DNA of 64,000 bases from Bradyrhizobium lupini. GTDB taxonomy: Bacteria > Pseudomonadota > Alphaproteobacteria > Rhizobiales > Xanthobacteraceae. Made by a program: the position numbers and the translations under genes. Within the stretch, counting starts at the first letter, position 1, and the number at the start of each line of letters is the position of its first letter. The notes beneath the pieces were generated by a model. That model was not told where the DNA came from, searched no databases, and was given only the letters and a program-made list of their open reading frames with translations. This document shows, piece after piece, positions 5,115-42,216 of this stretch. The stretch is from contig NZ_CP162553.1 in assembly GCF_040939785.1 (NCBI RefSeq), positions 4,855,001 through 4,919,000 of the forward strand, read 5' to 3'.

Positions 5115-6287
5115 ATGACTGTAGCGAAGCCCGCTTCGCGGCCGAACGTGCCGCATTTTTCCTCCGGCCCCTGCGCCAAGCGCCCCGGATGGAATGCCCA
5201 AAATCTCAAGGACGCAGCGCTCGGCCGTTCGCATCGCGCGAAGGTCGGCAAGACCAAGCTCAAGCTCGCGATCGATTTGACGCGCGAAGTGCTCGAAGTG
5301 CCCGCTGATTATCGCATCGGCATCGTGCCAGCCTCCGATACCGGCGCGGTCGAGATGGCGCTGTGGTCGATGCTGGGTGCGCGGCCCGTCACCACGCTCG
5401 CCTGGGAATCCTTTGGCGAGGGCTGGGTCAGCGACATCGTCAAGGAATTGAAGCTCAAGGATGTCACCAAGCTCAACGCGGCTTACGGTGAGATCCCCGA
5501 CCTCTCCAAGGTCGATCCGAAGTCCGACGTCGTCTTCACCTGGAACGGCACCACCTCGGGCGTGCGCGTGCCGAACGCCGACTGGATCAGCGCGACCCGC
5601 GAAGGCCTGACCATCTGCGACGCCACCTCGGCCGCGTTCGCGCAACCCCTCGACTGGGCCAAGCTCGACGTCGTCACCTTCTCCTGGCAGAAGGCGCTCG
5701 GCGGCGAAGCCGCGCATGGCATGCTGATCCTGTCGCCCCGCGCGGTGGAGCGGCTCGAAACCTACAAGCCGGCCTGGCCGCTGCCGAAGATTTTCCGCAT
5801 GACCAAGGGCGGCAAGATCAACGAAGGCATTTTCGTCGGCGAGACCATCAACACGCCGTCGATGCTCTGCGTCGAGGATTATCTCGACGCACTGAACTGG
5901 GCCAAGTCGATCGGCGGCCTGAAGGCGTTGATCGCGCGCGCCGACGCCAACACCAAGGTGCTCGCCGACTGGAAGGCTAAGACGCCCTGGATCGACTTCC
6001 TCGCCAAGGACGCCGCAATCCGCTCCAACACTTCGGTGTGCCTGAAGTTCACCGATCCCGCGATCACCTCACTCTCCGAGGACGCGCAGGCCGAGTTCAG
6101 CAAGAAGCTGGTGGCGCTGGTCGAGAAAGAGGGCGCGGGCTACGACTTCGCCTACTATCGCGATGCGCCCGCCGGCCTGCGTATCTGGTGCGGCGCCACC
6201 GTCGAGGCCAGTGATGTCGCGCTGCTGACCCAGTGGATCGACTGGGCCTTCGCCGAGACCAAGGCCGCGCTCGCCAAGGCGGCGTAG
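5115..6287 (+). CDS. serC: Phosphoserine aminotransferase
   Basis: A 390-residue PLP enzyme that converts 3-phosphohydroxypyruvate and glutamate to phosphoserine and 2-oxoglutarate, the second step of serine synthesis; it also serves pyridoxal phosphate synthesis in many bacteria. It is the alphaproteobacterial/archaeal form, with [12 protein letters not shown] at the N-terminus. The Schiff-base lysine is K193 in [11 protein letters not shown], and the aspartate that contacts the PLP ring nitrogen is likely D169. It lies directly behind a serC leader RNA and 213 bases before serA, the enzyme of the preceding step, with a palindromic repeat in between. Confidence 0.95.
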
Positions 6288-6293
6288 TTTTTA

Positions 6294-6420
6294 CCTCTCC
6301 CCGTTCTTACGGGGAGAGGTCGGGTCGCGCAGCGATCCGGGTGAGGGGCTCTCTCCGCGAGCACCTCGCCTGTGGCTGCCCCCTCACCCCGACCCTCTCC
6401 CCGTAAGAACGGGGAGAGGG
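6294..6420. repeat. Palindromic interspersed repeat, CTCTCCCCGT type
   Basis: The hairpin unit CTCTCCCCGTTCTTACGGGGAGAG at 6295-6318 recurs in inverted orientation at 6395-6418, and the GGTCGGG/CCCGACC and GTGAGGGG/CCCCTCAC arms between them also pair. The whole forms one long inverted repeat between serC and serA. A single unit of the same family is at 31903-31948. Such units are dispersed in Bradyrhizobium and Rhodopseudomonas genomes. It could attenuate read-through from serC to serA or protect mRNA ends. Confidence 0.8.
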
Positions 6421-6500
6421 AGAGCAAAGAGCTTCCGAGCAATTCCCCATTCCGGCCCTCAGGCCGATCTCCCTCTAGGGACGGCGAAGGACACATCTCC

Positions 6501-8090
6501 ATGACCAAACCCAAAGTTCTCATTTCCGACGCGCTCTCTCCCGCTGCCGTGCAGATCTTCAAAGACCGCGGCGTCGAGGTCGACTTCCAGCCCAATCTCG
6601 GCAAGGACAAGGACAAGCTCGCCGAGATCATCGGCAATTACGACGGCCTCGCGATCCGCTCCGCGACCAAGGCGACCGCGAAGATCCTCGAGAAGGCGAC
6701 CAACCTCAAGGTGATCGGCCGCGCCGGCATCGGCGTCGACAACGTCGAGATTCCTGCCGCCACGGCCAAGGGTATCATCGTGATGAACACGCCGTTCGGC
6801 AATTCGATCACGACCGCCGAGCACGCCATCACCCTGATGCTGGCGCTGGCGCGCGAGATTCCGCAGGCGGACGCTTCGACCCAGGCCGGCAAGTGGGAGA
6901 AGAACCGCTTCATGGGCGTCGAGATCACCGGCAAGGTGCTCGGAGTCGTCGGCTGCGGCAACATCGGCTCGATCGTCGCCGACCGCGCGCTCGGCCTGCG
7001 CATGAAGGTGATCGCGTTCGATCCGTTCCTGTCGCCGGAGCGCGCCAGGGACATCGGCGTCGAGAAGGTCGAGCTCGACGACCTCTTCAAGCGCGCCGAC
7101 TTCATCACCCTGCACACCCCGCTCACCGAGAAGACCAGGAACATCATCGACGCAGCCGCGATCGCCAAGATGAAGAAGGGCGTGCGCCTGATCAACTGCG
7201 CCCGCGGCGGTCTCGTCGACGAGCAGGCCGTGGTCAACGCTTTGAATTCCAAGCACATCGCCGGCGCCGCTTTCGACGTCTTTGTCGAGGAGCCCGCCAC
7301 CGCGAATGTGCTGTTCGGTCATCCCAACGTGATCTGCACGCCGCATCTCGGCGCGTCCACCACCGAGGCGCAGGAGAACGTCGCGCTCCAGGTTGCCGAG
7401 CAGATGTCGGATTACCTGCTCACCGGCGCGATCTCGAATGCCGTCAACTTCCCCTCGATCACGGCGGAAGAGGCGCCGAAGCTGAAGCCGTTCATCGCGC
7501 TCGCTGAAAAGCTCGGTTCGTTCGCGGGACAGCTCACCGAGAGCGGCATCCTCAAGGTCGAGATCACCTATGAGGGCCACGTGGCCGAGATGAAGATCAA
7601 GGCGATCACCTCCGCCGTGCTGTCGGGCCTGCTGCGGCCGATGCTGGGTGAGGTCAACGTCGTCTCCGCGCCCGTCGTCGCCAAGGAGCGCGGCATGGTG
7701 GTGGACGAGATCGTCCGCGCCGCCCAGAGTGACTATGAAAGCCTGATCACCGTCACCGTCACCACCGAGCGGCAGGAGCGGTCGGTCTCGGGCACGGTCT
7801 ATGCCGACGGCAAGCCGCGCCTGGTCGACATCAAGGGCATCCGCGTCGACGCTGAATTTGGCAAGTCGATGATCTACGTGACCAACGAGGACAAGCCGGG
7901 TTTCATAGGCAAGTTCGCGAGCCTGCTCGGCGATGCCAAGATCAACATCGCGACCTTCCATCTTGGCCGCGTTGCGCCGGGCTCCGATGCCATCGCGCTG
8001 ATCGAGGTCGACGGCGCGGTGCCGGCCGATCTGCTTGCCAAGGTGCAGGCTCTGCCGCAGGTCAAGCAGGTCAAGGCGCTGACGTTCTGA
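6501..8090 (+). CDS. serA: D-3-phosphoglycerate dehydrogenase
   Basis: A 529-residue NAD enzyme that oxidises 3-phosphoglycerate to 3-phosphohydroxypyruvate, the committed step of serine synthesis. The substrate domain comes first. The Rossmann motif GCGNIG is at 151-156, with catalytic Arg235 (NCARGG), Glu264 (VEEP) and His282 (TPHLGAST). An intervening domain (about 315-450) leads to a C-terminal ACT domain (about 455-525, NEDKPGFIGKFASLL), the usual serine-feedback site. This is the long form. ATG 6501 starts the family sequence with GAAGGA upstream; a 43-residue in-frame extension is just the palindromic repeat read as protein. Confidence 0.95.
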   Translation: MTKPKVLISDALSPAAVQIFKDRGVEVDFQPNLGKDKDKLAEIIGNYDGLAIRSATKATAKILEKATNLKVIGRAGIGVDNVEIPAATAKGIIVMNTPFGNSITTAEHAITLMLALAREIPQADASTQAGKWEKNRFMGVEITGKVLGVVGCGNIGSIVADRALGLRMKVIAFDPFLSPERARDIGVEKVELDDLFKRADFITLHTPLTEKTRNIIDAAAIAKMKKGVRLINCARGGLVDEQAVVNALNSKHIAGAAFDVFVEEPATANVLFGHPNVICTPHLGASTTEAQENVALQVAEQMSDYLLTGAISNAVNFPSITAEEAPKLKPFIALAEKLGSFAGQLTESGILKVEITYEGHVAEMKIKAITSAVLSGLLRPMLGEVNVVSAPVVAKERGMVVDEIVRAAQSDYESLITVTVTTERQERSVSGTVYADGKPRLVDIKGIRVDAEFGKSMIYVTNEDKPGFIGKFASLLGDAKINIATFHLGRVAPGSDAIALIEVDGAVPADLLAKVQALPQVKQVKALTF

Positions 8091-8241: not shown

Positions 8242-9414
8242 ATGCGTGAAGCCGTCATCGTTTCCTATGCACGCACGGGCCTCGCGAAATCCGGCCGCGG
8301 CGGGTTCAACATCACCCCGCCGATGTCGCTCGCGGCCCACGCCATTCACCACGCAGTCGACCGCGCCGGCGTCGAGAAGGACTATGTCGAGGATTGCTAT
8401 CTCGGCAATTGCGCTCATGGCGCGCCGAACATCGGCCGCCAGGCCGCGCTGCTGGCGGGAATGCCGAAATCGACCGGGGGCGTCTCGGTGAACCGGTTCT
8501 GCTCGTCCGGTCTCCAGACCATCGCGATGGCCGCCAACTCGATCCGCTCGGACGGTTCCGACTGCATCGTCGCAGGCGGCGTCGAGAGCATCTCGATGCC
8601 GGGCGGCGGCACGCCGAAGGAATCGATCGATCCCGAACTGCTCAAGACGGCACCGGCGATCTTCATGGCGATGATTGACACCGCCGATATCGTCGCCGAG
8701 CGCTACAATCTCAGCCGTGAATATCAGGACGAGTATTCGCTGGAGTCGCAGCGCCGCATGGCCGCCGCGCAGCAGGCCGGCAAGTTCAAGGACGAGATCG
8801 TCCCGATGAAGACTAAGATGAAGGTGGTCGACAAGGCGACCAAGGCCGAGTCGATCGTCGATTACGTCGTCGACCGCGACGAGTGCAACCGGCCCGAGAC
8901 CACGCTGGAAGGTCTCGCCAAGCTCGAGCCCGTCAGGGGCCCCGGCAAGTTCGTCACGGCCGGCAACGCCAGCCAGCTGTCGGACGGTGCTGCGGCCGTG
9001 GTGCTGATGGAAGCCAAGGACGCGGAGAAGCGCGGCCTCAATCCCATGGGCCGCTTCGTCGCCTGGGCGGCGGCGGGTTGCGAACCGGACGAGATGGGCA
9101 TCGGCCCGATCTTTGCCGTGCCGAAGCTGTTGAAGCGTCACGGTCTGAAGATCGACGACATCGATCTCTGGGAGCTCAACGAAGCCTTCGCCAGCCAGTG
9201 TCTCTATTCGCGCGACAAGCTCGGCATCGATCCCGCCAAGTACAATGTCAACGGCGGCTCGATCGCGATCGGCCATCCGTTCGGCATGACCGGCGCGCGG
9301 CTCACCGGCCACATCCTCCAGGAAGGCAAGCGCCGCAAGGCGAAGTGGGGCGTCGTGACGATGTGCATCGGCGGCGGCCAGGGCGGCGCGGGACTGTTCG
9401 AAATCTACAGCTGA
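8242..9414 (+). CDS. Acetyl-CoA C-acyltransferase (thiolase)
   Basis: A 390-residue thiolase that either condenses two acetyl-CoA or cleaves 3-ketoacyl-CoA. The acylated nucleophile is Cys87 (NRFCSSGLQT). His345 in [13 protein letters not shown] and Cys375 in [11 protein letters not shown] complete the active site. Start at 8242 has GGGAG upstream. Its neighbours give no hint whether it works in beta-oxidation or polyhydroxybutyrate synthesis, though a phasin gene lies 10 kb away. Unusual: from about codon 342 to beyond the stop, the gene is duplicated at 14178-14378, which suggests that its 3' end was rebuilt by an inserted element. Confidence 0.93.
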   Translation: MREAVIVSYARTGLAKSGRGGFNITPPMSLAAHAIHHAVDRAGVEKDYVEDCYLGNCAHGAPNIGRQAALLAGMPKSTGGVSVNRFCSSGLQTIAMAANSIRSDGSDCIVAGGVESISMPGGGTPKESIDPELLKTAPAIFMAMIDTADIVAERYNLSREYQDEYSLESQRRMAAAQQAGKFKDEIVPMKTKMKVVDKATKAESIVDYVVDRDECNRPETTLEGLAKLEPVRGPGKFVTAGNASQLSDGAAAVVLMEAKDAEKRGLNPMGRFVAWAAAGCEPDEMGIGPIFAVPKLLKRHGLKIDDIDLWELNEAFASQCLYSRDKLGIDPAKYNVNGGSIAIGHPFGMTGARLTGHILQEGKRRKAKWGVVTMCIGGGQGGAGLFEIYS

Positions 9415-9466
9415 GATCGAGCCTCATGAATGCGGAAGGCACGGCGTCGCAAGCGTCGTGCCTTTT
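9266..9466 (+). repeat. Left copy of the 201-bp direct repeat (attL-like)
   Basis: This stretch covers the last 49 codons of the thiolase gene, its stop and its terminator. It recurs at 14178-14378 at a constant offset of 4912 bases. I count three substitutions (AGGAAGG/AGGAGGG, CTCATG/CTCGTG, GCGTCG/GCGCCG) and no indels. The match begins sharply inside the gene and ends in the terminator T-run. This is the layout expected when an element integrates into a gene and supplies a replacement 3' end. Confidence 0.85.
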
Positions 9467-9467
9467 T
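9438..9467 (+). terminator. Rho-independent terminator of the thiolase gene
   Basis: GGCACGGCG and CGTCGTGCC pair around TCGCAAG (one G-T pair) and end in TTTTT. The duplicate at 14350-14378 has the compensating change GCGCCGTGCC, making a perfect stem. Confidence 0.85.
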
Positions 9468-9501
9468 GTTTGAGCACCAGGTCAGGCGTGTACTCTTTGG
9501 G

Positions 9502-10452
9502 TCACCGGTTTTGTGGGATGAAGCGGCTGAAGGATGGTAGTCTAAGACAAAGCTTGATGATGAGGGGAAGCGCGAGGACCGGGATGACGCACGCAGCGAC
9601 ATAACCTTCCGCCAGCGACGGCAGACCGAAGCTCGCCGCTGCCCACACGAGCGTGACGTTGCGGTTTCCGCTCACGAGACCGATGGTACCGGCGGTTTGC
9701 CACCCCAGCCTCGCGAACGTCACGGCAGCGAGGACGCACAGACCGAAATTGAACACGATCGCCGCGGCGAGCATCACGTCGAAACGCAGGGCGTTGCTGG
9801 TCCATTGCGCCCGTATGCCTTGCGAGGTGGCAAGCCCCACGATCATGAGCCCGACAACGGCGATCCCGGTGGCGGCGCTTTGATCGGGCAGAACGGGAAT
9901 CACATGACGACGAAACCTCATGGCTAAGAAGGCCACCAGGCCTGCAGCGCCGATAATGCTGAAGAGCCGGATTGCCAGCCCGCCCATGTCGAATGCAATT
10001 CCAAGCCCGAGCACCGTGGCAAAACTCGGAATCGAGATCGGCGTGAGCAAGGTCAGTGCGATGGAAACGAGCAGTGCAAGACGTGGTCGCAAACCGAGCA
10101 TTCCGGCGATCGCAGCGGCGCTTCCGACCGGCGGCGCCAGCAGTGAAAGCAGAACGCCGGCCCGCAGCGCAGGATCAAGCGGAGCAAAGGACAGCAGAAT
10201 CGCAGCAGCGAATGGCAGCACCAGGCCAACCCAGGCAAGTACCACGCCCATCAGGAGCGGACGAATGCTGGCTTCAGAGGGGGCAAGACCCGCCGTAAGA
10301 AACGAGCCCAGCGTCAGAAGAAATGCCGAAAAAGGCAAAAGATCGTAGCCGAGATGAGCGAAGGGAGTGATCATCAGCCCTGCGCAAAGCGAGATCACCA
10401 GGAGCATAGGTCCTTGTCCGCCAAGCGTGGACAATATCCGGCCAACGTACAT
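9502..10452 (-). CDS. BASS-like (bile acid:Na+ symporter superfamily) membrane transporter
   Basis: A 316-residue protein with about nine or ten hydrophobic segments filling its whole length. The segment LVSGNRNVTLVWAAASFG near the C-terminus resembles the SGNRN-type conserved helix break of bile-acid:sodium and arsenite-efflux symporters, and the LLAPPVGSAAA break near residue 105 fits the inverted-repeat partner. Inner membrane; substrate unknown. It is the last gene of a minus-strand run behind four tiny membrane proteins, with a 75-base gap to the nearest. The assignment is at fold-family level. Confidence 0.6.
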   Translation of the reverse strand: MYVGRILSTLGGQGPMLLVISLCAGLMITPFAHLGYDLLPFSAFLLTLGSFLTAGLAPSEASIRPLLMGVVLAWVGLVLPFAAAILLSFAPLDPALRAGVLLSLLAPPVGSAAAIAGMLGLRPRLALLVSIALTLLTPISIPSFATVLGLGIAFDMGGLAIRLFSIIGAAGLVAFLAMRFRRHVIPVLPDQSAATGIAVVGLMIVGLATSQGIRAQWTSNALRFDVMLAAAIVFNFGLCVLAAVTFARLGWQTAGTIGLVSGNRNVTLVWAAASFGLPSLAEGYVAACVIPVLALPLIIKLCLRLPSFSRFIPQNR

Positions 10453-10527
10453 CTCAGCTCCTCAGGACTTGCGCATCGACGACGATGCGTCTTCAGATTT
10501 CAGTCATGTCGGCCACCATTGCGAACG

Positions 10528-10680
10528 TCAGAAGAATCCGGCGCTCAAATCCAGGCCGTAGGTTCGTGAGAGCACGAACACAAAGGCGCACGCTGCGCAT
10601 AACAGGAGGGCGTGCTTCGCCAATTCGGCACCGATGACCGAGAGGACCGTGCGGGAAATCGTGCGTATGATTGCTGGCAA
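10528..10680 (-). CDS. Small single-span membrane protein (50 aa, TTG start)
   Basis: A 50-residue protein starting at a TTG that has AGGAGG with ideal spacing. It begins PAIIRTISRTVLSVIG and has a hydrophobic segment HALLLCAACAFVFVLS (about residues 24-39), ending LDLSAGFF. No homologue comes to mind. It is one of four tiny membrane proteins in a row, upstream of the BASS-like gene. The strong ribosome site and the shared layout with its neighbours argue that it is real. Confidence 0.55.
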   Translation of the reverse strand: MPAIIRTISRTVLSVIGAELAKHALLLCAACAFVFVLSRTYGLDLSAGFF

Positions 10681-10730
10681 TGTTGCCTCCTGGTTTTCAA
10701 ATCCCATGAACCGGCTGCATGTGGCGGCCG

Positions 10731-10937
10731 TCAGTCGGTGTGCGAAGCGAGGATCAGGGGCGGATCACCTCGCTCGGTCGACGCGCGCTGAATGAGGATC
10801 GCGCCGATCACGTGAACGAGGCCGAATCCCAGCAGAACGAGGATCATCAGGCGCGTCTCGCCGCCTGTTCGCTTTCTGTCGTGCGATGCTGGAGATCTGG
10901 CCCGAATTGGAGACGCAGCACGGTTGTGATTGTTCAC
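10731..10937 (-). CDS. Small single-span membrane protein (68 aa)
   Basis: A 68-residue protein with a basic N-terminal third (RARSPASHDRKR) and one transmembrane helix LMILVLLGFGLVHVIGAIL, followed by an acidic tail. I prefer the GTG at 10937, five bases after AGGA; an ATG four codons further upstream (10949) is the alternative. The positive-inside rule places the N-terminus in the cytoplasm. Not recognised. Confidence 0.45.
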   Translation of the reverse strand: MNNHNRAASPIRARSPASHDRKRTGGETRLMILVLLGFGLVHVIGAILIQRASTERGDPPLILASHTD

Positions 10938-10977
10938 GATTGTCCTCATATGCTTTGCTGTCGCTCGTCCCGATCGC

Positions 10978-11205
10978 CTACGGCGCCGACGGGTTCGAAA
11001 TGTAGTGGGTAACGAAATCGTCGGAGGCCAGGTTGGCTTGGCGCTCTCGGGGCGCCTTGCTCATTGCCGCGAAGGCAATCACCAGCGCCAGGAGCGAGCC
11101 ATAGAAGGCGACCACTCCAAGTCTCCACATCGCAACCAATCGCTGTTCTTGATCGGACGCGAGAAACCTCTGCGATTGTCTTCCCTGCTGTGCGATGTCG
11201 GTCAA
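10978..11205 (-). CDS. Small single-span membrane protein (75 aa, TTG start)
   Basis: A 75-residue protein with a TTG start preceded by AGGAGG at five bases. It has a polar N-terminal 27 residues, one hydrophobic segment (LGVVAFYGSLLALVIAFAAM, about 29-48), then a charged tail ending VTHYISNPSAP. It belongs to the same run as its three small neighbours. Not recognised. Confidence 0.5.
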   Translation of the reverse strand: MTDIAQQGRQSQRFLASDQEQRLVAMWRLGVVAFYGSLLALVIAFAAMSKAPRERQANLASDDFVTHYISNPSAP

Positions 11206-11247
11206 TGCGACCTCCTGTTTGATGGCTGTTGTGATGCCGGCGTGCGA

Positions 11248-11436
11248 TCAGTCGCCTCCGAAAAGGAGCGGTGCGACGGGCGGCGCCGACTGCGAAGCGG
11301 CCCTGAGTGTCGGGTGTGCAAAGGTCGTCAACGCTGCGTCGAATCCGGCGAGAACCACGAACAAGCCAACGACGATCATGATGAGGTGATGCGCGCGCAC
11401 GCTGACTTCCGGATGAAATTGCTCCGCGTCGATCAA
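11248..11436 (-). CDS. Small single-span membrane protein (62 aa)
   Basis: A 62-residue protein with a central helix LIMIVVGLFVVLAGFDAAL and a hydrophobic Pro-rich tail. The TTG start at 11436 has only a distant GAGATG upstream, so the start is uncertain. It would be the first gene of the minus-strand run and lies about 150 bases from the divergent regulator gene; the intergenic space probably carries both promoters. Confidence 0.4.
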   Translation of the reverse strand: MIDAEQFHPEVSVRAHHLIMIVVGLFVVLAGFDAALTTFAHPTLRAASQSAPPVAPLLFGGD

Positions 11437-11587
11437 CCAACCGGCATCTCGTCGCGATGCGATCTGAACCCACTGTCGTCGTCGCCGGCGTCACTCGGCC
11501 GTCACTGCAGCGTTAATATTGTTCGCTAAGGCGGCAATTCGTGTAGGATGTATATCCGTGAGCGCATCTGCTTATTTTTGAGGCGGA

Positions 11588-13591
11588 ATGACCGAAACTG
11601 CACCCGCGCCCAGCCCAAGTTTTACTCTCGCACTTCTTGGACGTTTTGAACTGATCGGGCCGGACGGTGCCGTCAGCTTACCGAACAAGAAGCTCGCGGG
11701 ATTGCTGGCCTATCTGGCCTGCACGGCACCTCAGCCTCAGCACCGCGAAAAACTCTCGACCTTGCTGTGGGGATCGCACTTCGAAGCGCAGGCGAAGCAA
11801 AACCTGCGACAGGCCCTGTTCAAGCTGCGTCAAGTTCTTGGTCAGAGTGCTCTCAGGAGTGACGGCGAATTCATTTCGTTGAATGCCGTTGTGATCACCT
11901 GCGATGTGCCGCAATTCGAGCGGCTTGTCAGAAAGGGCAGCCGTGACGCGCTGACCGCGGCGGCAGATCTCTATCGCGGGCGCCTCGTCGATGACATCGC
12001 GGTCAACGCTGAGGGCTGGAGCGAGTGGGTGGCCGGCGAACGCGAGCGGTTATCGGAGCTGGCTGTCGGCGCGATGGTAGCGCTCGGCGACCAGGAACTG
12101 TCCGACGGACGTGCCGGCGATGCCCTGCTCGCCGGCCAGCGCGCCAATGCACTCAACAGCATGCGCGAGGATGCGCACCGCCTGATCATGCGCGCGTTGT
12201 CCGCGGCCGGCCGCAACGCCGAGGCGCTCAAATATTATCAGGCCGTCGTTGCCTTTCTGAAGCAAGAGCTCGGCACCGCGCCCGATGCCACAACCAGCGC
12301 GCTGGCTGCGGAATTGCGCAAGGTCCAGGAGCAGAAGATCGTTCTGCCGGCAGCGGACCCGACGGCAGACCTTTCGCACCAGGCGGAGCACGTGTTCGGC
12401 AACGACAGGCCCTCCGTGGCGGTGCTTCCGTTCCGCAACATGGGTGATGAAACCGAACAGGACTACTTCGCCGATGGCGTCACTGCAGACATCATCACCG
12501 CTCTATCGCGCTTTCGCGAGCTGGTGGTGATCGCGGCCGGATCGTGCTTTGCCCTTCGGGACAAGGGAATGACCAGCCGGCAGATTGCGCAGCAACTCGG
12601 TGCGCAATACGTCCTGAGCGGTCATATTCGCAAGGCGGGCAACCGCATTCGCGTCTCGGCCGAGCTCACTCATACCGGAAGCGAGGCCCAGGTCTGGTCC
12701 AATCGCTACGATCGCCCCCTGGTCGACATCTTCGACCTGCAGGACGACGTCAGCAGCAGTGTTGCCGCAGTCGTCGATCCCGCCGTTCGTAGCGCCGAGA
12801 TCGAACGCGCACGCCGCAAGCCGCCAACTGATCTTTCGGCCTATGATCTGTATTTGCGCGGCCTTCATCATTTATGGGGCGGCACCCGCGAAGGTATCGT
12901 CAAGGCCATCGATCTGCTTCGGCGGTCTCTGAGCCTCGATCAGGAGCGAACGGCGACGCTGGCGGCGCTGGCTTGGGGACTCGTGATGGCTCCGCCGCTC
13001 GGCGCCAACATGTCTGCGGATGCCGCGTCCGAGGCGGTCGGTCTGGCGCGCCGCGCCGTCGAGCAGGATAGTGGGGACGCTTTCGCCCACGCTGTCTATG
13101 GCTTCACGCTGTTTGGGCCCGCCGGCGACAACGATCAGGGGCGCATTCACGCCAGCGAAGCCGCAAGGCTCAATCCGAGTTCGGCTTTCGCATGGGGTGT
13201 ACTCGGAATGATCGACAGCATGGGAGGCGATTATGCCAACGCACTCGCATGCCTGCATCGGTCTCTCGTCCTCAGCCCCGAGGACAGCATGCTCCATATG
13301 TGGATGACGGGATTGACCGCGTCCTACTTTGCCCTCGGGCAGTACGAGGAGGGCGTTGCCTGGGCGCGCAAGTCGGTTCGGCACAATCCGAGCAACGGCA
13401 CCGGACATCGCATGCTCGCGGCCAACCTGGTCGGGGTCGGCCGGCTGGAGGAAGCCCGCGAGGTCACCCGGGTTCGCGATGCGGCACAAAAAACGACGAT
13501 CCGCGATCTGCGCGCCATGCGCTTTTTCAAGCAGCACGAGGCGCTTGAACGCTACCTTTCGGCCCAGCAGATCGCCGGCGTGGCCGACTGA
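11588..13591 (+). CDS. SARP/BTAD-type regulator with TolB-like and TPR domains
   Basis: A 667-residue cytosolic regulator. Residues 10-100 form an OmpR-like winged helix (LALLGRFEL, then REKLSTLLWG and LRQALFKLRQVLG), followed by a bacterial transcriptional activation domain (about 100-250). From about 275 a FlgO/TolB-like segment (SVAVLPFRNMGDETEQDYFADG) follows, and from about 420 tetratricopeptide repeats run to the end. This architecture is common in Bradyrhizobium, often annotated as adenylate-cyclase-like. GAGGCGG precedes the ATG. Divergent from the small membrane-protein run, so it is a good candidate for controlling it. The TPR part would sense a protein or ligand. Confidence 0.8.
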   Translation: MTETAPAPSPSFTLALLGRFELIGPDGAVSLPNKKLAGLLAYLACTAPQPQHREKLSTLLWGSHFEAQAKQNLRQALFKLRQVLGQSALRSDGEFISLNAVVITCDVPQFERLVRKGSRDALTAAADLYRGRLVDDIAVNAEGWSEWVAGERERLSELAVGAMVALGDQELSDGRAGDALLAGQRANALNSMREDAHRLIMRALSAAGRNAEALKYYQAVVAFLKQELGTAPDATTSALAAELRKVQEQKIVLPAADPTADLSHQAEHVFGNDRPSVAVLPFRNMGDETEQDYFADGVTADIITALSRFRELVVIAAGSCFALRDKGMTSRQIAQQLGAQYVLSGHIRKAGNRIRVSAELTHTGSEAQVWSNRYDRPLVDIFDLQDDVSSSVAAVVDPAVRSAEIERARRKPPTDLSAYDLYLRGLHHLWGGTREGIVKAIDLLRRSLSLDQERTATLAALAWGLVMAPPLGANMSADAASEAVGLARRAVEQDSGDAFAHAVYGFTLFGPAGDNDQGRIHASEAARLNPSSAFAWGVLGMIDSMGGDYANALACLHRSLVLSPEDSMLHMWMTGLTASYFALGQYEEGVAWARKSVRHNPSNGTGHRMLAANLVGVGRLEEAREVTRVRDAAQKTTIRDLRAMRFFKQHEALERYLSAQQIAGVAD

Positions 13592-13594
13592 GCC

Positions 13595-14089
13595 TCAAGC
13601 GCCGAGTGCAACGAGCAGCGTGCGCACGGTCATGAAGACCAGGATGACCGAGCCGACGGTCCACAGCATTGCGCGAATGTCGTGAATTTGCCCGGTGAGA
13701 TAGGCGAGAAAATGCAGCAGGCGTGAGGCAACGTAGCCGTAGAGCAGGCATTGCGCGAGAAGCAGCGACGGCTTTGTGAGAACATAAAGAAAGCCCGCGG
13801 CCAGGAAATACGGCAGGCTCTCGAGATCGTTCATCTGGATCCGGCGGATCCGCTCCACATCTTCGTTGGGAAGAAGCTGCGCCGGATCGGGTGCGGGATT
13901 CAGTGGTGTCTTCTTGATGTCCTCCGGCGAACGGTAGCCGCCCTGGGCCCTCACCATCCGGACCACGGTGAGCCACGACATCGCCACGGCCTTGAGGATG
14001 ATCAAGCTGGCGGCAACGACATAGGTGGCGAAGAGGGGATCGTGAAGATTGATTCCGTCCAATTTGGTACCCCGCTCCGGCAGGGCCAT
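13595..14089 (-). CDS. MAPEG family membrane protein
   Basis: A 164-residue membrane protein with about four hydrophobic segments: YVVAASLIILKAVAMSW, then RIQMNDLESLPYFLAAGFLY, the ALCLLYGYVASR-like third helix, and a C-terminal helix. The R-x-x-x-N-D-x-E-x-x-P-x-F core is the MAPEG signature (membrane-associated proteins in eicosanoid and glutathione metabolism). The start at 14089 (MALPERG) is the most sensible; the open frame continues upstream into the duplicated thiolase end, which is not coding on this strand. Convergent with the regulator, three bases between stops. It is the last gene inside the putative island. Confidence 0.8.
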   Translation of the reverse strand: MALPERGTKLDGINLHDPLFATYVVAASLIILKAVAMSWLTVVRMVRAQGGYRSPEDIKKTPLNPAPDPAQLLPNEDVERIRRIQMNDLESLPYFLAAGFLYVLTKPSLLLAQCLLYGYVASRLLHFLAYLTGQIHDIRAMLWTVGSVILVFMTVRTLLVALGA

Positions 14090-14177
14090 ACTACATGTCC
14101 GAGCGGGTTGCGCCACTACGTAAAGGCAGCCGCCAGTCCAGTCCCAGCCTGATCTCGCCTTATGCCTTCGCCAGCGC

Positions 14178-14378
14178 CGATCGGCCATCCGTTCGGCATG
14201 ACCGGCGCGCGGCTCACCGGCCACATCCTCCAGGAGGGCAAGCGCCGCAAGGCGAAGTGGGGCGTCGTGACGATGTGCATCGGCGGCGGCCAGGGCGGCG
14301 CGGGACTGTTCGAAATCTACAGCTGAGATCGAGCCTCGTGAATGCGGAAGGCACGGCGTCGCAAGCGCCGTGCCTTTT
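14178..14378 (+). repeat. Right copy of the 201-bp direct repeat (attR-like), orphan thiolase 3' end
   Basis: This repeats 9266-9466 with three substitutions. It contains the last 49 codons of a thiolase ([10 protein letters not shown] through [10 protein letters not shown]), its stop at 14324-14326 and the terminator hairpin at 14350-14374, but no thiolase start or body precedes it. It is therefore a gene remnant and cannot make a working enzyme. To its right lies the AI-2E permease gene, probably the original downstream neighbour of the thiolase gene. Confidence 0.85.
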
Positions 14379-14416
14379 GCTTTCTGGCGTGTGCTTGGGG
14401 ATACGCCCGCGGCAAC

Positions 14417-15586
14417 TCAACCGTTCTTCTCGGGCGCGACAGGTCGGAACACCCACTCGCGCCAGACCACCAGCAACGCCGACATGATCACCGGGCCGAG
14501 AAACAAGCCCAGAAGGCCGAAGGCAGCCAAGCCTCCGAAGATCCCGACGAACGCGAACAGAAACGGCAGCCGCGCGGAGTCGCCGACCAGGGTCGGCCAG
14601 ACGAAATGATCGCCGGCCAACATGACGATCGCGCCCCAGAAGAAGACGCCCGCGGCTGCGAAGCCGCTGCCTCCGCCAGAGACCAGCACCACCGCCGCAG
14701 CGGTGAAAGCGAGCCAGGCGCCGAACGGAAGCATGGCGAAGGCCGTGGTCAATATCGTGAATACGATGGCATGCGGCACGCCCGCGACGAAATAGGCCAC
14801 GCCGATCAATAATCCCTCGCCTGCGGCGACCAGCACCGTACCGTTCACGGTGCCGCGGATCGCATCGACCATTTGCTCGGCGAGACCCTCTCCCGCCTCA
14901 CCGAAAAGCCGATCGCAGGTTTCCAGCACGCGGTCCGAGATCGACCGGCCGTTGCGCAGCAAGACGAACAAGGCGATCAGCGAAAAGAACAGAAGAAACA
15001 GGCGATGAAGCAGCTGTCCGCCGAACGTTCGAAACAGTTCCGATGCGTTGTCTGCGTTGACGCTTTTCAGCCATGCGGTCGCGGCTTTGGGATCGGAAAG
15101 ATTGCTGCGCCACCACTGCTCGATGCTCTCTGCGGCGATCGGAAGGCGGGCGAGCCAATCAGGCACTTCGATCCCGCTCTCTCCGGCCTGTTTCATCCAG
15201 CCCACGAGCAGATCGCCTTGCTGCGCGATCTGATAGACGGCAAGCGACATCGGCGTAAACAGGATGAGGGCGACGACGAGCGTGAAGACCAGCGGGGCCA
15301 GGCTGGAGCGGCCGGAGGTCACGCGTGCCGCAAACTTGGTGTAGAGCGGCCACAGGCTGGTTGCGAGTATCGCGGCCCAGATCACTGCGGGCAGAAAGCC
15401 CGCCGCCGTCCACAACGCGAGTGCGACCAGCGCAAGGGCAAGCACGACCCGTGCGTTCATGCGCGCGCCCGCGCCGGTAGGCAGCGGCTTTCGCTCAGTC
15501 GTGGTCGGGCCGCCCTCGCTCCGCGCCGCCTCGCTCCGCTTGGGCGGACGCTGCTTCGATGCCACGGATTTCGCTCGTTCGGTCAT
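14417..15586 (-). CDS. AI-2E family transporter (PerM/YdiK-like)
   Basis: A 389-residue inner-membrane permease. After a basic, Pro-rich N-terminal tail of about 45 residues come paired helices (VVLALALVALALWTAAGFLPAV...), a long soluble stretch (about 125-215), then a helix cluster with GEGLLIGVAYFVAGVPHA and a final FLGPVIMSALLVVWREW, the usual end of the AI-2E/UPF0118 family. Despite the family name, most members do not transport autoinducer-2, and the substrate is unknown here. Convergent with the terminator of the duplicated thiolase end. Confidence 0.85.
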   Translation of the reverse strand: MTERAKSVASKQRPPKRSEAARSEGGPTTTERKPLPTGAGARMNARVVLALALVALALWTAAGFLPAVIWAAILATSLWPLYTKFAARVTSGRSSLAPLVFTLVVALILFTPMSLAVYQIAQQGDLLVGWMKQAGESGIEVPDWLARLPIAAESIEQWWRSNLSDPKAATAWLKSVNADNASELFRTFGGQLLHRLFLLFFSLIALFVLLRNGRSISDRVLETCDRLFGEAGEGLAEQMVDAIRGTVNGTVLVAAGEGLLIGVAYFVAGVPHAIVFTILTTAFAMLPFGAWLAFTAAAVVLVSGGGSGFAAAGVFFWGAIVMLAGDHFVWPTLVGDSARLPFLFAFVGIFGGLAAFGLLGLFLGPVIMSALLVVWREWVFRPVAPEKNG

Positions 15587-15771
15587 TTGAAGTCGCTGGG
15601 TGCGGGAGCTGCAGTGTCGAACTGATCAGCAGGAGAAACGCTGGGTCCAGGCTTCAAGCCGCAACGAGGGGCTTCGGTTCCGCTCGGGAAGAAGTCGCAA
15701 TGGCGCCCTTCGCGGGGCGCGGCTCGGCCGAAGCCGCCCGTGCACCGCGGGCAGGAAATCGCGTTCGCCGC

Positions 15772-18700
15772 TTACGCCTGCGCCAGTGCCGGTGCGAACA
15801 CCACCTCGATCAGCGAGCCGGAGTTCGCCGCGCTCTTGATGTTGAAGCGGGCGCGGTTGGCTTCGACCAGGGCCTTGGTCAGCGACAAGCTCAGCGCCGA
15901 ACTGTCTTCGGCGTCGCCGGGCGGCGGCGTGCGGAACGGCTCCATCGCGGCGGCGACTTCGCGCTCGCTGAGGCCGTGACCGGTGTCGCGGATGCGAAGT
16001 GCGACCTCGCCGCGGTCGGTGAGCGCGGTCGAGACGATGACCTGGCCGCCGGCGCTGGCGAGCCGGATCGAGTTCGAGATCAGGTTCATGGTGATCTGCC
16101 GCATCGCGCGCGCATCCGCGCTCACCTGCGGCAGGGCATGGCCGAGCGAGGTGCGGATGATGATGCGCTCGCGATTGGCCTGCGGCTGCATCACGACCAC
16201 GCAGGCCTCGACCAGATCATTGAGGTTGAGGTTGGCGAAGTTGAGGTCGAGCTTGCCGGTCTCGATCCGCGACAGCTCGAGCAGGTCGTCGATGATGGCG
16301 ATGACGCGCTCGCCGGAGGCGCGGATGTCCTTCATGTACTCGCCGTAGCGCTCGTTGCCGAGCGTGCCGAAGCGTTCCGAGATCATCACCTCCGAAAAGC
16401 CGATGATGGCGTTGAGCGGCGTGCGGATCTCGTGGCTGATCCGCGCCAGCATGTCCGCCTTGGCATTGGCCGCGCCGTCGACCAGACGTCGCACCTGCGT
16501 CAGCTCGCTCTCGCCCTGCTTGCTGTGCGAGAGGTCGCGGAACACGGCGAAGAAGTTCGGGCCGTCGGGCCGGGTGCGGCCCATGATCATCGCGAGCGGA
16601 ATGACGCCGCCCTTCTTCTCGCGCCCCAGCACCTCGCGGCCGTGGTCGAGCAGGCTCGCGATGTCCTGGCTCTTGAGGTTTTCCAGATAGTCGATCACGA
16701 CATGCTGGCTCTCCGGCGCGAACAGCGTCACCAGATTCTGCTGCATCAGCGTCTCGCCGTCATAGCCGAACAGCGCCTCGGCGCTGCGGTTGCAGGCGTG
16801 GATGTTGCCTTCGGCATCGAACATCACGATGCCCTCGGCCGTGGTGTCGAGGATCGCGGCGAGATCTTCCGCGGCCGCCTCGCCGGCGTCGGGCTCCGGC
16901 GCGGTGGGGAAGGTCTCGGGGACAATGGTCTCGGCGGTGACGGTCTCGGCGATGACGGGCGCAGCGGGCGCTGCCTGCGGCAGCGCGCAGATCAGCGCAT
17001 GCGCGCTCTCGCCGTCCCAGTCGATCGCGTGCAGATGCGCCTCGGTGGTCGGCAGCGGCGCTTCGCCATTGGCGAGCGTCGCGCTGATCGTGACCGGCGT
17101 GCCGGCTTGCGACGTGCTGCTGGCCGCGGACACGCCGGGCTCGACATAGAGTGCATCTAGCCCGCCGGCGTTCTCAAGTGCGCTCAGGCTGGCATAGCCC
17201 ATGCGCGCGAGAAACGCGGGGTTGGCGTAGAGCAGGCGGTCGAGCCGATAGATCAGGATGCCGGTCGGCAGCAGGTCGAGCAGCGCGCGGTCGCGCGGGC
17301 TGTGGCCGTGCGCGGGCGGCGCGGGCGCGGTCAGCCATTCGGCCGGCGCGTGCGGCGTCTCAGGCTCGGGCTCCGGCGTCGGCGCCTCAGGCGTGATCTC
17401 GGCATCCGGCGGCTCGGACGATGCCGCGATGGTTTCCTTGTCGCGTTCGAGGCGCTCGGACAATTGGCGGGCGAGCTCGTTGAACGCGCTGTTCTCGACC
17501 GGCGTCAGCGTCGGCGATCGCGTGTCGCCGGGCGCTCGGAACGGCAGGACATTGGGAGGCGTTTCCACTGGCGTTTCCGGATCGGTTGGATGTGAATTCG
17601 CGTCGGTTGTGGGGTCGGTCAGTTCGGCTTCAGGCGCGGGCTCAGGTGCGGGCGGCTCGATCGGCGGAGGCGGCGGCTCTGGCTCAGGCTCCGGCTCGAT
17701 CACATCGGCGGACAGGCTTTGCGGCGCCGCCGGTTCGGCCAAAAGCTCAAAACGCCTGAGCGCATCGAGCCGGTTGAGGCCGTCGAGATCGCGGCAGACG
17801 CCAAATCCCCTGAAGCCCGCGAAATTGCGCTCGCCGTCATAAACCGGAAGTCCGGCAAGCTCGACCGGCAGATGCTCGCCGCCATCGGCCGGCCAGTTCA
17901 CGGTGATCCCGGCCCAGGTGTCCTTGCTGGCAAGCGCCTGCGCCACGCGGCCTTCAGGGTCGAGCGCGAAGGCGTCGGCGATCTCGCGCCAGGGGCGGTC
18001 GAAGCCGGCGGCCGTGCGCGGCCCGATCAGGTGGATGAATTCGTCGGAGAGAAGCACAAAGCGGCCCTCTGCATCCACCTTCCAGAGGAAGCGCAGCGGA
18101 TGCTGACGCGGTGCGGGCGGCTCTTCGTGGCCCGACGGCGGCTCGACCATGCCGGTTACGGTCGGCGCGGCCTGCGGCGACACCATGGCTTCGGCCGAGT
18201 TTTCAACCGGAGTCTTCGGTTCGACCTCGGCGCGCGCTTCGGCCGCTTGCTCGACGGCTTGCTGGATCGAGACGATCTCGGTCGCCGGCTCGCTTGCAGG
18301 CGGTTCGTGCGCGATCGTTGCTTGCGGCGCGTCGACCGGCTCGGCGAAGGCGTCGAACAGCGCGATCTCTGATGGCGCCTCGTGCGACGGCGCGGCTTGC
18401 ACATCCTGCGGCACGGCGGCTGGAGCAGCGGGCGGCGCAGCCTCATGCTGAGCGATGTCTTCTCGGGCGATCTCTTCGCGCGCGACCTCTTCAGCGGCCT
18501 CGGGTTCGACCTCATCAGTCCCAGCCGCCGCCTGCTGCACGGCAGGCTCGATCAGCGCGACCAGGCCGACATCGGCCCCGCTGCCGACCCGCTGCAGCAC
18601 CATCTGGCCGATGCCGATCGGCGTCTCGGCGCGGCCCTGGCGAAGCGCATCGCTGCGCGCCTGCTCGAGGCCCCCTCGGTGAGATCGCGGAAGCCGAGCA

Positions 18701-19187
18701 GGGTGCGGGCCGTTTCGCTGGCGCCGACGAACAGTCCGTCGGGCGCGAACGCCGCCATCGGCGTCTTGGCGCCGTCGACCAGACGAAGCAGCCGCTCGAC
18801 CAGCGGCATGGTGCGCAAGCCGGGGTCCATCGCCGTGACGAGCACAGCGCGGCCGCCATCGGCGAAGTCGAGCCGGGCGCAGGCGCAGGTCATCAGCGTG
18901 CCGAGCCGCGCGCCGAAGCCGCGCAGCCGTTCGAGCCGGATCGCGCCGTTCGGAGGCAGCCGGCCGGCAAGCCGGATGATCTGGCGGCGGTGGCCGTCGG
19001 TGGGCCCGAAAATCCTGTCCGCCAGCGCCGTGGCATTGGCCGCGCCGAACAGCCTTGCCCCGACCGGATTGGCCCAGAGCACGCGCGTGCCGTCGATCGA
19101 CCAGAGCCAGGCGGGCAGCGGCGAGGTCGCGTGCACGGCCAGCCGGGGATCGCCCACGCCTCGCAACTGGAAATCCGAACTCGTCAT
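15772..19187 (-). pseudogene. PAS-domain sensor histidine kinase, frame broken by one base
   Basis: A protein of about 1138 residues if repaired. The N-terminal frame (from ATG 19187, MTSSDFQLRGVGDP) has PAS-like segments as far as LLGFRDLTE. The reading frame must then shift near the run of five C on the plus strand at 18671-18675 to continue as LEQARSDALRQGRAETPIG. A long Pro/Glu/Ala-rich linker and further PAS domains follow (AEGIVMFDAEGNIHACN), then the HisKA H-box SHEIRTPLNAIIGF and an ATPase domain (N-box NLISNSIR, G-box DTGHGLSE). It resembles PdhS/PleC-type kinases that control CtrA-dependent cell-cycle pathways in Rhizobiales. A sequencing error is as likely as real decay. Confidence 0.75.
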
Positions 19188-19409
19188 CCGACCGGCTTCG
19201 CGTCCCGCTTGTGCGCATCAGGCTGCCGGGAATGACAGCCTTAAGAAAGGGTTAGTATCGCCCGCAGGGCCGGGCAGGTCCACGGCCGAAGCCTAGCCGC
19301 CAAGGCCTAAAGCCGCGATAACCTTAATGTCCCTGACCCCGCAAGCCGTAGCCCGTTCGCATCCCCATCCTTCGAGATCCCCGCGTCCGCAGATACCCAT
19401 GCCGCCCAG

Positions 19410-19454
19410 CCTCATCCTGAGGAGACCGCGCAGCGGTCGTCTCGAAGGACGAGG
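19410..19454. repeat. Palindromic interspersed repeat, CCTCATCCTGAGG type
   Basis: CCTCATCCTGAGGAG and CTCGAAGGACGAGG flank the inner stem GACCGC/GCGGTC, giving a long hairpin. This unit, in the form CATCCTTCGAGACG...CCTCAGGATGAGG, is among the most frequent short repeats in Bradyrhizobium and relatives. Confidence 0.7.
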
Positions 19455-19556
19455 CGCGCGCTCAGGCACCACCTGATTACCTCAACCACCGGTTCCCGAT
19501 CCCGGGAACCTCATCCTCCCCGCGATTAAATTTGCGCAATGCACCCCAAAACCCGT

Positions 19557-42140: not shown

Positions 42141-42216
42141 TGGAGACCCGGCCTGGATTTGAACCAGGATAAAGAGCGATGCATCGCCCTCGCGTAGACA
42201 CTTCCGCCACCGGGCC
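42141..42216 (-). tRNA. Aberrant tRNA-like gene, Cys-type GCA anticodon
   Basis: A 76-base cloverleaf on the minus strand with an encoded CCA. The acceptor GGCCCGG/CCGGGTC (G2-U71), U8, a three-pair D stem GCG/CGC, and T arm CCTGG TTCAAAT CCAGG are all sound. The anticodon arm is AGGGC/GCTCT with an 8-base loop GATGCATC, or a 6-base loop ATGCAT if G-C closes; neither is the normal seven. U-GCA in the loop plus discriminator U73 point to cysteine. The D loop lacks the GG pair (GTGTCT), so the usual G19-C56 contact is absent. It could be a pseudo-tRNA or a specialised tRNA. Confidence 0.6.

What the first reader, a model, noticed from the sequence alone, without database searches (positions are those of the whole stretch)
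9266..14378. Thiolase 3' end duplicated around a 4.7-kb segment: an integrated island with a rebuilt gene end
Bases 9266-9466 and 14178-14378 match at a constant offset of 4912, with 3 mismatches in 201 and no indels. The match starts inside the thiolase gene and ends at its terminator. The intact gene is on the left and an orphan 3' end on the right. This is the pattern of elements that integrate into protein genes and supply a replacement 3' end (the e14 prophage in icd is a known case). No integrase is visible, so this would be a minimal or decayed element, or one mobilised in trans. A protein-gene attachment site in a thiolase would be unusual.
Basis: partly seen in the sequence, partly recalled or inferred. 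Interest (0 to 1): 0.85.

Follow-up and report, generated by a model that had tools for sequence, protein, structure and literature searches.

The report
Two cassette versions joined in tandem
A short duplicated end of a thiolase gene in this bacterial genome is the scar of a sloppy DNA join that placed two alternative versions of a variable gene slot side by side, not the footprint of an integrating element.

Summary
The repeat is real: 9266-9466 and 14178-14378 differ at 3 of 201 bases. The 4.7 kb between the copies is a gained segment: in five relatives the thiolase terminator runs straight into the AI-2E permease (G209, G151, G201, G130, G202). The mechanism is not that of an integrative element. 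The bases just before the right copy (14160-14179) are the 3' end, stop codon included, of the PdhS-like kinase gene that lies beyond the permease. The right junction thus joins 'kinase 3' end' to 'thiolase 3' part' with a 2-bp overlap. The locus holds two versions of one slot in tandem: thiolase-module-(kinase end), then (thiolase end)-permease-kinase. This junction is in 3 of 265 genus genomes. The slot is highly variable: 115 to 10,542 bp between thiolase and kinase in 74 relatives; no recombinase was found among the ORFs tested. Likeliest cause: import of the module version with one homologous and one illegitimate join; rival: tandem duplication, then a swap of one filling. A known kind of event, unusually well preserved.

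The parts
8242..9414 (+). intact thiolase (acetyl-CoA acyltransferase) gene, left conserved flank of the slot
   Evidence: Pfam Thiolase_N and Thiolase_C; TIGR01930 413 bits, cut-off 241
9266..9466 (+). left copy of the repeat: thiolase 3' end plus terminator
9490..14127 (.). gene module (span that aligns with copies elsewhere; these begin at 9488-9510 where the left gene is present and end at 14067-14127)
9502..10452 (-). 316-aa membrane-protein-like ORF of the module, no family found
   Evidence: conserved at 83-88% in four other genomes
11588..13591 (+). 667-aa regulator: BTAD domain and TPRs
   Evidence: Pfam BTAD 2.2e-27
13595..14089 (-). MAPEG-family membrane protein (the mechanical ORF runs to 14224, into the repeat; start at 14089 is my choice)
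   Evidence: Pfam MAPEG 2.8e-25 on the longer ORF
14160..14179 (-). scar: last 20 nt of a kinase gene (stop codon TTA on the + strand at 14160-14162); the last 2 bases are shared with the thiolase copy
   Evidence: about 12 preceding bases resemble kinase downstream flanks of G009 and G236
14178..14378 (+). right copy of the repeat: orphan thiolase 3' end plus terminator
14417..15586 (-). AI-2E family transporter, the other filling of the slot
   Evidence: Pfam AI-2E_transport 1.1e-32
15772..19218 (-). PdhS-like histidine kinase, right conserved flank of the slot
   Evidence: NCBIfam PdhS 565.7 bits, E 2e-169, but below that model's cut-off of 2000

Best explanation
The interval between the thiolase and the PdhS-like kinase is a variable slot whose fillings differ between strains and are probably exchanged by recombination in the conserved flanks. 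Here a piece from a strain with thiolase-module-kinase was added to a strain with thiolase-permease-kinase instead of replacing the permease. One side was joined by homology at the thiolase. The other side was joined illegitimately: the donor's kinase 3' end was fused, with a 2-bp overlap, to the recipient's thiolase 3' part. The module and the permease now lie in tandem, with a stray kinase end and an orphan thiolase end between them. The route may be homology-facilitated illegitimate recombination of a linear piece, or end-joining of the piece into a circle followed by one crossover in the thiolase end. Shown: both repeat copies, the kinase-end scar, slots that are empty or filled otherwise, the same junction in two other genomes. 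Inferred: donor and recipient roles and the route. Inferred on few sites: later gene conversion between the copies in the window lineage. Predicted, not shown: recombination between the copies would delete 4912 bp and restore thiolase-permease.
For: Kinase 3' end abuts the thiolase copy with 2-bp overlap: 21 of 21 in G227 and 20 of 22 in G137 against their own kinase ends. For the window the 18-mer at 14160 scores a mean of 13.35 of 18 against kinase ends of 75 sites; among 150 other window 18-mers starting with TTA the best is the true kinase end at 15772 (13.32) and the next 10.93; 156 reverse-strand controls reach 10.65. Direct thiolase-permease slots in G209, G151, G201, G130, G202 and a module-next-to-kinase slot without permease in G234. 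Bases after the left terminator resemble permease-less G127 and G054, those after the right terminator resemble permease-bearing G209 and G151. Slot contents vary over 75 sites. No recombinase found. Duplication of a gene end by one crossover of an end-joined molecule has been seen by experiment with lacZ in E. coli (PMC3240628, passages).
Against: No genome with the exact donor arrangement (thiolase-module-short spacer-kinase) was found; G234 has other genes left of the module and a different spacer before the kinase. In the passages read, HFIR usually shows 3-10 bp of microhomology and a deletion, here 2 bp and a duplication. The three junction genomes do not group in trees of the flanks (AU p 0.47 upstream, 0.10 in the kinase; 22% and 0% of bootstrap trees with one origin), so inheritance from one event is not shown by the trees. 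The module is no more alike between the three genomes than the flanks at most places. The scar is only about 20-32 nt long.
Confidence: 0.6

Rival explanations
1. Tandem duplication first: in one ancestor the stretch from the thiolase 3' part to the kinase 3' end was duplicated within the strain with a 2-bp-overlap join; later, ordinary homologous exchange replaced the filling of one of the two copies, so that one carries the module and the other the permease.
For: The kinase-end/thiolase-end junction is exactly that of a tandem duplication; fillings vary so much that swapping seems common.
Against: Needs two steps; no genome with the junction and the same filling on both sides was seen: 3 of 265 have the junction, and in all three it separates module and permease.
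Confidence: 0.3
2. Integrative element: a minimal or decayed element that integrates into the thiolase gene by site-specific recombination and supplies a replacement 3' end.
For: Repeat of a gene 3' end through its terminator on both sides of an insert; empty sites exist.
Against: Kinase-gene end at the border; no recombinase found; module lies at unrelated places in other genomes and in this slot in G234 without the repeat; copies 28 of 201 apart in G227.
Confidence: 0.04
3. The right copy is the remnant of a complete second thiolase gene that was mostly deleted.
For: Partial gene copies often arise so (general knowledge).
Against: The copy begins at the same base in three genomes, straight after a kinase-gene end, and 3 of 201 differences in the window and 0 of 81 in G137 mark it as this very gene.
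Confidence: 0.03
4. Assembly artefact.
For: None beyond the repeat itself.
Against: Same junction in three separate genomes with their own substitutions; G000 and G137 are listed with one contig each, G227 with about 120.
Confidence: 0.01

Closest known systems
Homology-facilitated illegitimate recombination (HFIR), reported in S. pneumoniae, A. baylyi, P. stutzeri and E. coli (PMC3240628; passages read)
   Same: Foreign DNA gained with a homologous join on one side and a short-overlap illegitimate join on the other; no integrase.
   Different: Those passages report usually 3-10 bp microhomology and a deletion; here 2 bp and a duplication. Route of entry unknown here.
Duplication of part of lacZ by a single crossover of the incoming plasmid in E. 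coli conjugation (PMC3240628; passages read)
   Same: Direct repeat of a gene end on both sides of the added DNA, without site-specific recombinase.
   Different: Laboratory plasmid; here a chromosomal gene module whose far end is a piece of the neighbouring kinase gene.
Effector-immunity and Rhs arrays built by module addition, proposed to use HFIR (Vibrio T6SS; PMC5361080; passages read)
   Same: Modules added next to older ones between conserved flanks, leaving orphan gene ends, without an integrase.
   Different: There toxin-immunity genes at a variable 3' region; here a regulator, MAPEG and membrane-protein module beside a permease.
Replacement flexible genomic islands (PMC4033161; abstract and outline seen)
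   Same: Variable contents between conserved flanks, exchange ascribed to homologous recombination.
   Different: There replacement; here, at one site, addition.
Merodiploids and tandem duplications by transformation in S. pneumoniae (PMC3784515; passages read)
   Same: Two versions of a region in tandem after DNA uptake.
   Different: There about 100-900 kb, paired through existing repeats; here under 5 kb with a 2-bp overlap.
e14 prophage in icd and like elements (recalled; one search gave a listing only)
   Same: Gene 3' end repeated around an insert.
   Different: No recombinase found, kinase-gene scar at the border, module at unrelated places elsewhere.

Membership tests
Integrative element with replacement gene end (e14 type) | gene 3' end repeated at both borders | tested here: met
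   3 of 201 differences
Integrative element with replacement gene end (e14 type) | site-specific recombinase in the element | tested here: not met
   no such family in the insert ORFs scanned
Integrative element with replacement gene end (e14 type) | element ends at the attachment site with element DNA next to the repeat | tested here: not met
   the DNA next to the right copy is the 3' end of the chromosomal kinase gene
Integrative element with replacement gene end (e14 type) | excision as a circle | not testable with these tools
   needs an experiment
HFIR / illegitimate addition | foreign DNA relative to close relatives | tested here: met
   five relatives have thiolase followed directly by the permease; module in 4 of 75 sites
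HFIR / illegitimate addition | one join within homologous sequence | tested here: inconclusive
   the thiolase is continuous and about 96-98% like relatives; no import breakpoint could be placed
HFIR / illegitimate addition | other join illegitimate, with short overlap | tested here: met
   kinase end and thiolase end overlap by 2 bp in G227 and G137, same junction sequence in the window
HFIR / illegitimate addition | typical 3-10 bp microhomology and linked deletion | tested here: not met
   2 bp and a duplication; the norm is from passages of PMC3240628
Tandem duplication followed by swap | junction of downstream end to upstream start | tested here: met
Tandem duplication followed by swap | relatives with the junction and equal fillings | tested here: not met
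   3 of 265 genomes have the junction, each with module and permease
Replacement flexible genomic island / variable slot | conserved flanks with different contents among strains | tested here: met
   74 relative sites, 115-10,542 bp, several recurring fillings

The most novel reading that the evidence does not exclude
The thiolase-kinase slot is a genus-wide, recombinase-free cassette-exchange site, and in the window lineage the accidental 201-bp repeat, kept alike by gene conversion, has made the module a RecA-reversible cassette that can drop out cleanly and restore thiolase-permease.
Probability: 0.15. Interest if true: 0.5.

Novelty: new member of a known kind. Interest (0 to 1): 0.33.

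Why it matters
It is a natural case, readable to the base, of how a variable slot can gain genes by addition instead of replacement without any mobile element in sight. It also shows that a gene 3' end repeated around an insert is not enough to call an integrative element: the bases beside the repeat have to be checked against the far flank.

Tried and rejected
Integrative-element reading: given 0.04 because of the kinase-end scar and lack of a recombinase in the ORFs tested. Second full thiolase: set aside. Assembly error: set aside. Plasmid carriage of the module: blastn of 9490-14127 against 72,556 plasmid records matched 68 records, none covering 80% of the query; the 10 rows shown cover 7-10% at 65-68% identity, at the regulator gene; one record lies in the 80-90% band and was not looked at. 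Family of the 9502-10452 protein: no Pfam or NCBIfam match, and PDB hits only to antibody chains at E 0.03 or worse, taken as chance. Trees: the three junction genomes are not resolved as one clade. Identity along the locus gave no clear import breakpoint. Copies of the module elsewhere in the own genome: none beyond short matches at the regulator gene. Two further pattern hits (G041, G272, one mismatch) carry none of the eight genes searched and are unrelated. The 15-bp match in G058 was judged chance. In one search the row for G000 was read out of register and is void; one search repeats it. In one search one of 150 controls reached the G137 value; the top control value there, 13.32, equals that of the true kinase end.

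Literature: four searches. The Bradyrhizobium search listed 7 papers, none with a title on this subject; none was read. No claim is made that this locus is absent from print.

Survey limits: 94 thiolase loci from 94 genomes were fetched, roughly in order of match score, plus chosen cases, out of 265 genus genomes; it is not a random sample. 74 had the kinase end in reach; the other 20 (contig ends or other surroundings) were dropped from the interval counts. The lists of matches were capped.

Full report
Observation. The repeat is as described: 9266-9466 against 14178-14378, 3 differences in 201 and no indel, with background identity on either side. The insert holds a membrane-protein-like ORF without a family (9502-10452, -), short ORFs without families, a BTAD/TPR regulator (11588-13591, +) and a MAPEG protein (13595-14089, -). 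Right of the second copy lie an AI-2E transporter (14417-15586, -) and a PdhS-like kinase (15772-19218, -; below the model's cut-off).

Is the segment extra? Yes. A search of 265 genus genomes with 13595-14500 and a fetch of chosen sites showed thiolase-terminator-permease without interruption in G209 and G151 (about 97% identical upstream, 91-93% downstream) and in the more distant G201, G130 and G202. In G127 and G054, also about 95-97% identical upstream, the thiolase is followed after about 140 bp by the kinase end, with no permease.

The scar. The sequence directly before the right copy is not module sequence: module copies in other genomes stop aligning at 14067-14127. From 14160 to 14179 the window reads like the kinase gene's 3' end, beginning with the stop codon (TTA on this strand). 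In G227 21 of 21 bases match its own kinase end and overlap the thiolase copy by 2 bp; in G137 20 of 22 match, again with a 2-bp overlap. The window's own kinase end has diverged and did not reach the threshold of that search, so a direct control was used. The 18-mer at 14160 has a mean of 13.35 matches of 18 against the kinase ends of 75 sites (74 relatives and the window). Of 150 other window 18-mers that begin with TTA, the best is the true kinase end at 15772 (13.32) and the next 10.93; 156 such 18-mers of the other strand reach 10.65. The dozen bases before it resemble the kinase downstream flanks of G236 and G009; the best-scoring flank in that comparison was G137's own. The right junction is therefore a kinase 3' end fused to a thiolase 3' part.

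What this means. Left to right the locus is: thiolase, module, end of kinase | end of thiolase, permease, kinase. These are two versions of one slot in tandem. The few bases after each terminator agree with this: left copy like permease-less G127 and G054, right copy like permease-bearing G209 and G151. G234 has the module next to the kinase without a permease, after a monooxygenase, an MCP and other genes. So a module-next-to-kinase version exists, though with another spacer and with its regulator ORF shortened.

The slot. In 74 relative sites with both flanks in reach, the distance from thiolase to kinase stop runs from 115 to 10,542 bp, median 1,844. Counting the window (75 sites), 19 are under 500 bp and hold none of the queried genes, 15 hold other DNA, and 41 hold monooxygenase, MCP, module or permease genes, singly or together and always in that order. 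The permease is in 12 of 75 and is always last, beside the kinase; the module is in 4 of 75. Of 36 ORFs of at least 110 aa listed in 11 chosen intervals, 20, from 10 of them, were scanned with Pfam: none was a recombinase or transposase, and four had no family. A self-search for extra thiolase or kinase ends in the 74 sites and the window gave thiolase-end hits in the window, G227, G137, G063 (59 bp of the terminator region, 85%) and G058 (15 bp), and kinase-end hits in G227 and G137 only.

The module elsewhere. Six relatives carry it at other places. G109, G060 and G201 share long flanks with each other, G022 and G276 share others, and G058 shares neither; in G060 and G276 the membrane-protein gene was not found. 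In G201 the slot itself is thiolase-permease, so module and slot are independent there. This is ordinary chromosomal residence and not the behaviour of one element with one target.

History. The junction is in 3 of 265 genomes (G000, G137, G227); two other pattern hits, in G041 and G272, have one mismatch and lie at unrelated loci. Trees of the flanks do not resolve the three as a clade, and do not clearly reject it (AU p 0.47 and 0.10; one origin in 22% and 0% of bootstrap trees). Descent with loss in the others, or spread of the whole arrangement by recombination, are both open. In G137 146 bp of the window, 14259-14404, covering the rest of the right copy, are missing. The copies differ by 3 of 201 in the window, 0 of 81 in G137 and 28 in G227. 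At 9279 both window copies share a base otherwise seen, among the 11 sequences compared, only in G227's right copy, which suggests conversion from right to left in the window lineage. This rests on few sites, and replacement of the left end in G227 is an alternative.

Mechanism. Two routes fit. One is import from a strain with the other filling, with one homologous and one illegitimate join: HFIR, or an end-joined circle entering by one crossover, as in the lacZ duplications of PMC3240628 (passages). The other is tandem duplication followed by exchange of one filling. The first is one step and is preferred at about 2:1. Against a textbook HFIR event: the overlap is 2 bp, where 3-10 bp is usual, and there is a duplication, not a deletion. 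Vibrio T6SS and Rhs arrays are a published parallel for modules added without an integrase (PMC5361080, passages).

Verdict. Observation confirmed; 'gained segment' right; 'integrative element with a rebuilt gene end' not supported. A known kind of event, resolved to the base, in an unusually variable slot.

Noticed in passing
6294-6319 and 6394-6419: Perfect 26-bp inverted repeat, 74 nt apart, between the genes at 5115-6287 and 6372-8090; similar sequence occurs at other places in stretches of G003, G066 and G127, so perhaps a dispersed palindromic repeat.
   Followed up: no
19408-19467: A 60-bp stretch that recurs inverted several kb away in fetched stretches of G021 and G130 (about 87%), perhaps a dispersed repeat.
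   Followed up: no
42141-42216: ARAGORN reports a tRNA-like gene with an incomplete anticodon, possibly a decayed tRNA gene or a false call.
   Followed up: no
L138 (G063), from the thiolase stop to about 760 bp downstream: A second copy (59 bp, 85%) of the thiolase terminator region lies some 700 bp downstream, after a small ORF; possibly a second, older event of gene-end duplication in the same slot.
   Followed up: partly
L083 (G234) 12836-14982: The module copy in G234 aligns to the regulator gene only from window 11978 on; its ORF there is listed at 499 aa against 667 in the window, so the 5' part seems deleted.
   Followed up: no
8242-19218 and related loci: Recurring fillings of the slot in relatives are an FAD monooxygenase and a methyl-accepting chemotaxis protein in constant order with the permease last; this looks like a genus-wide variable spot beside a PdhS-like kinase.
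   Followed up: partly
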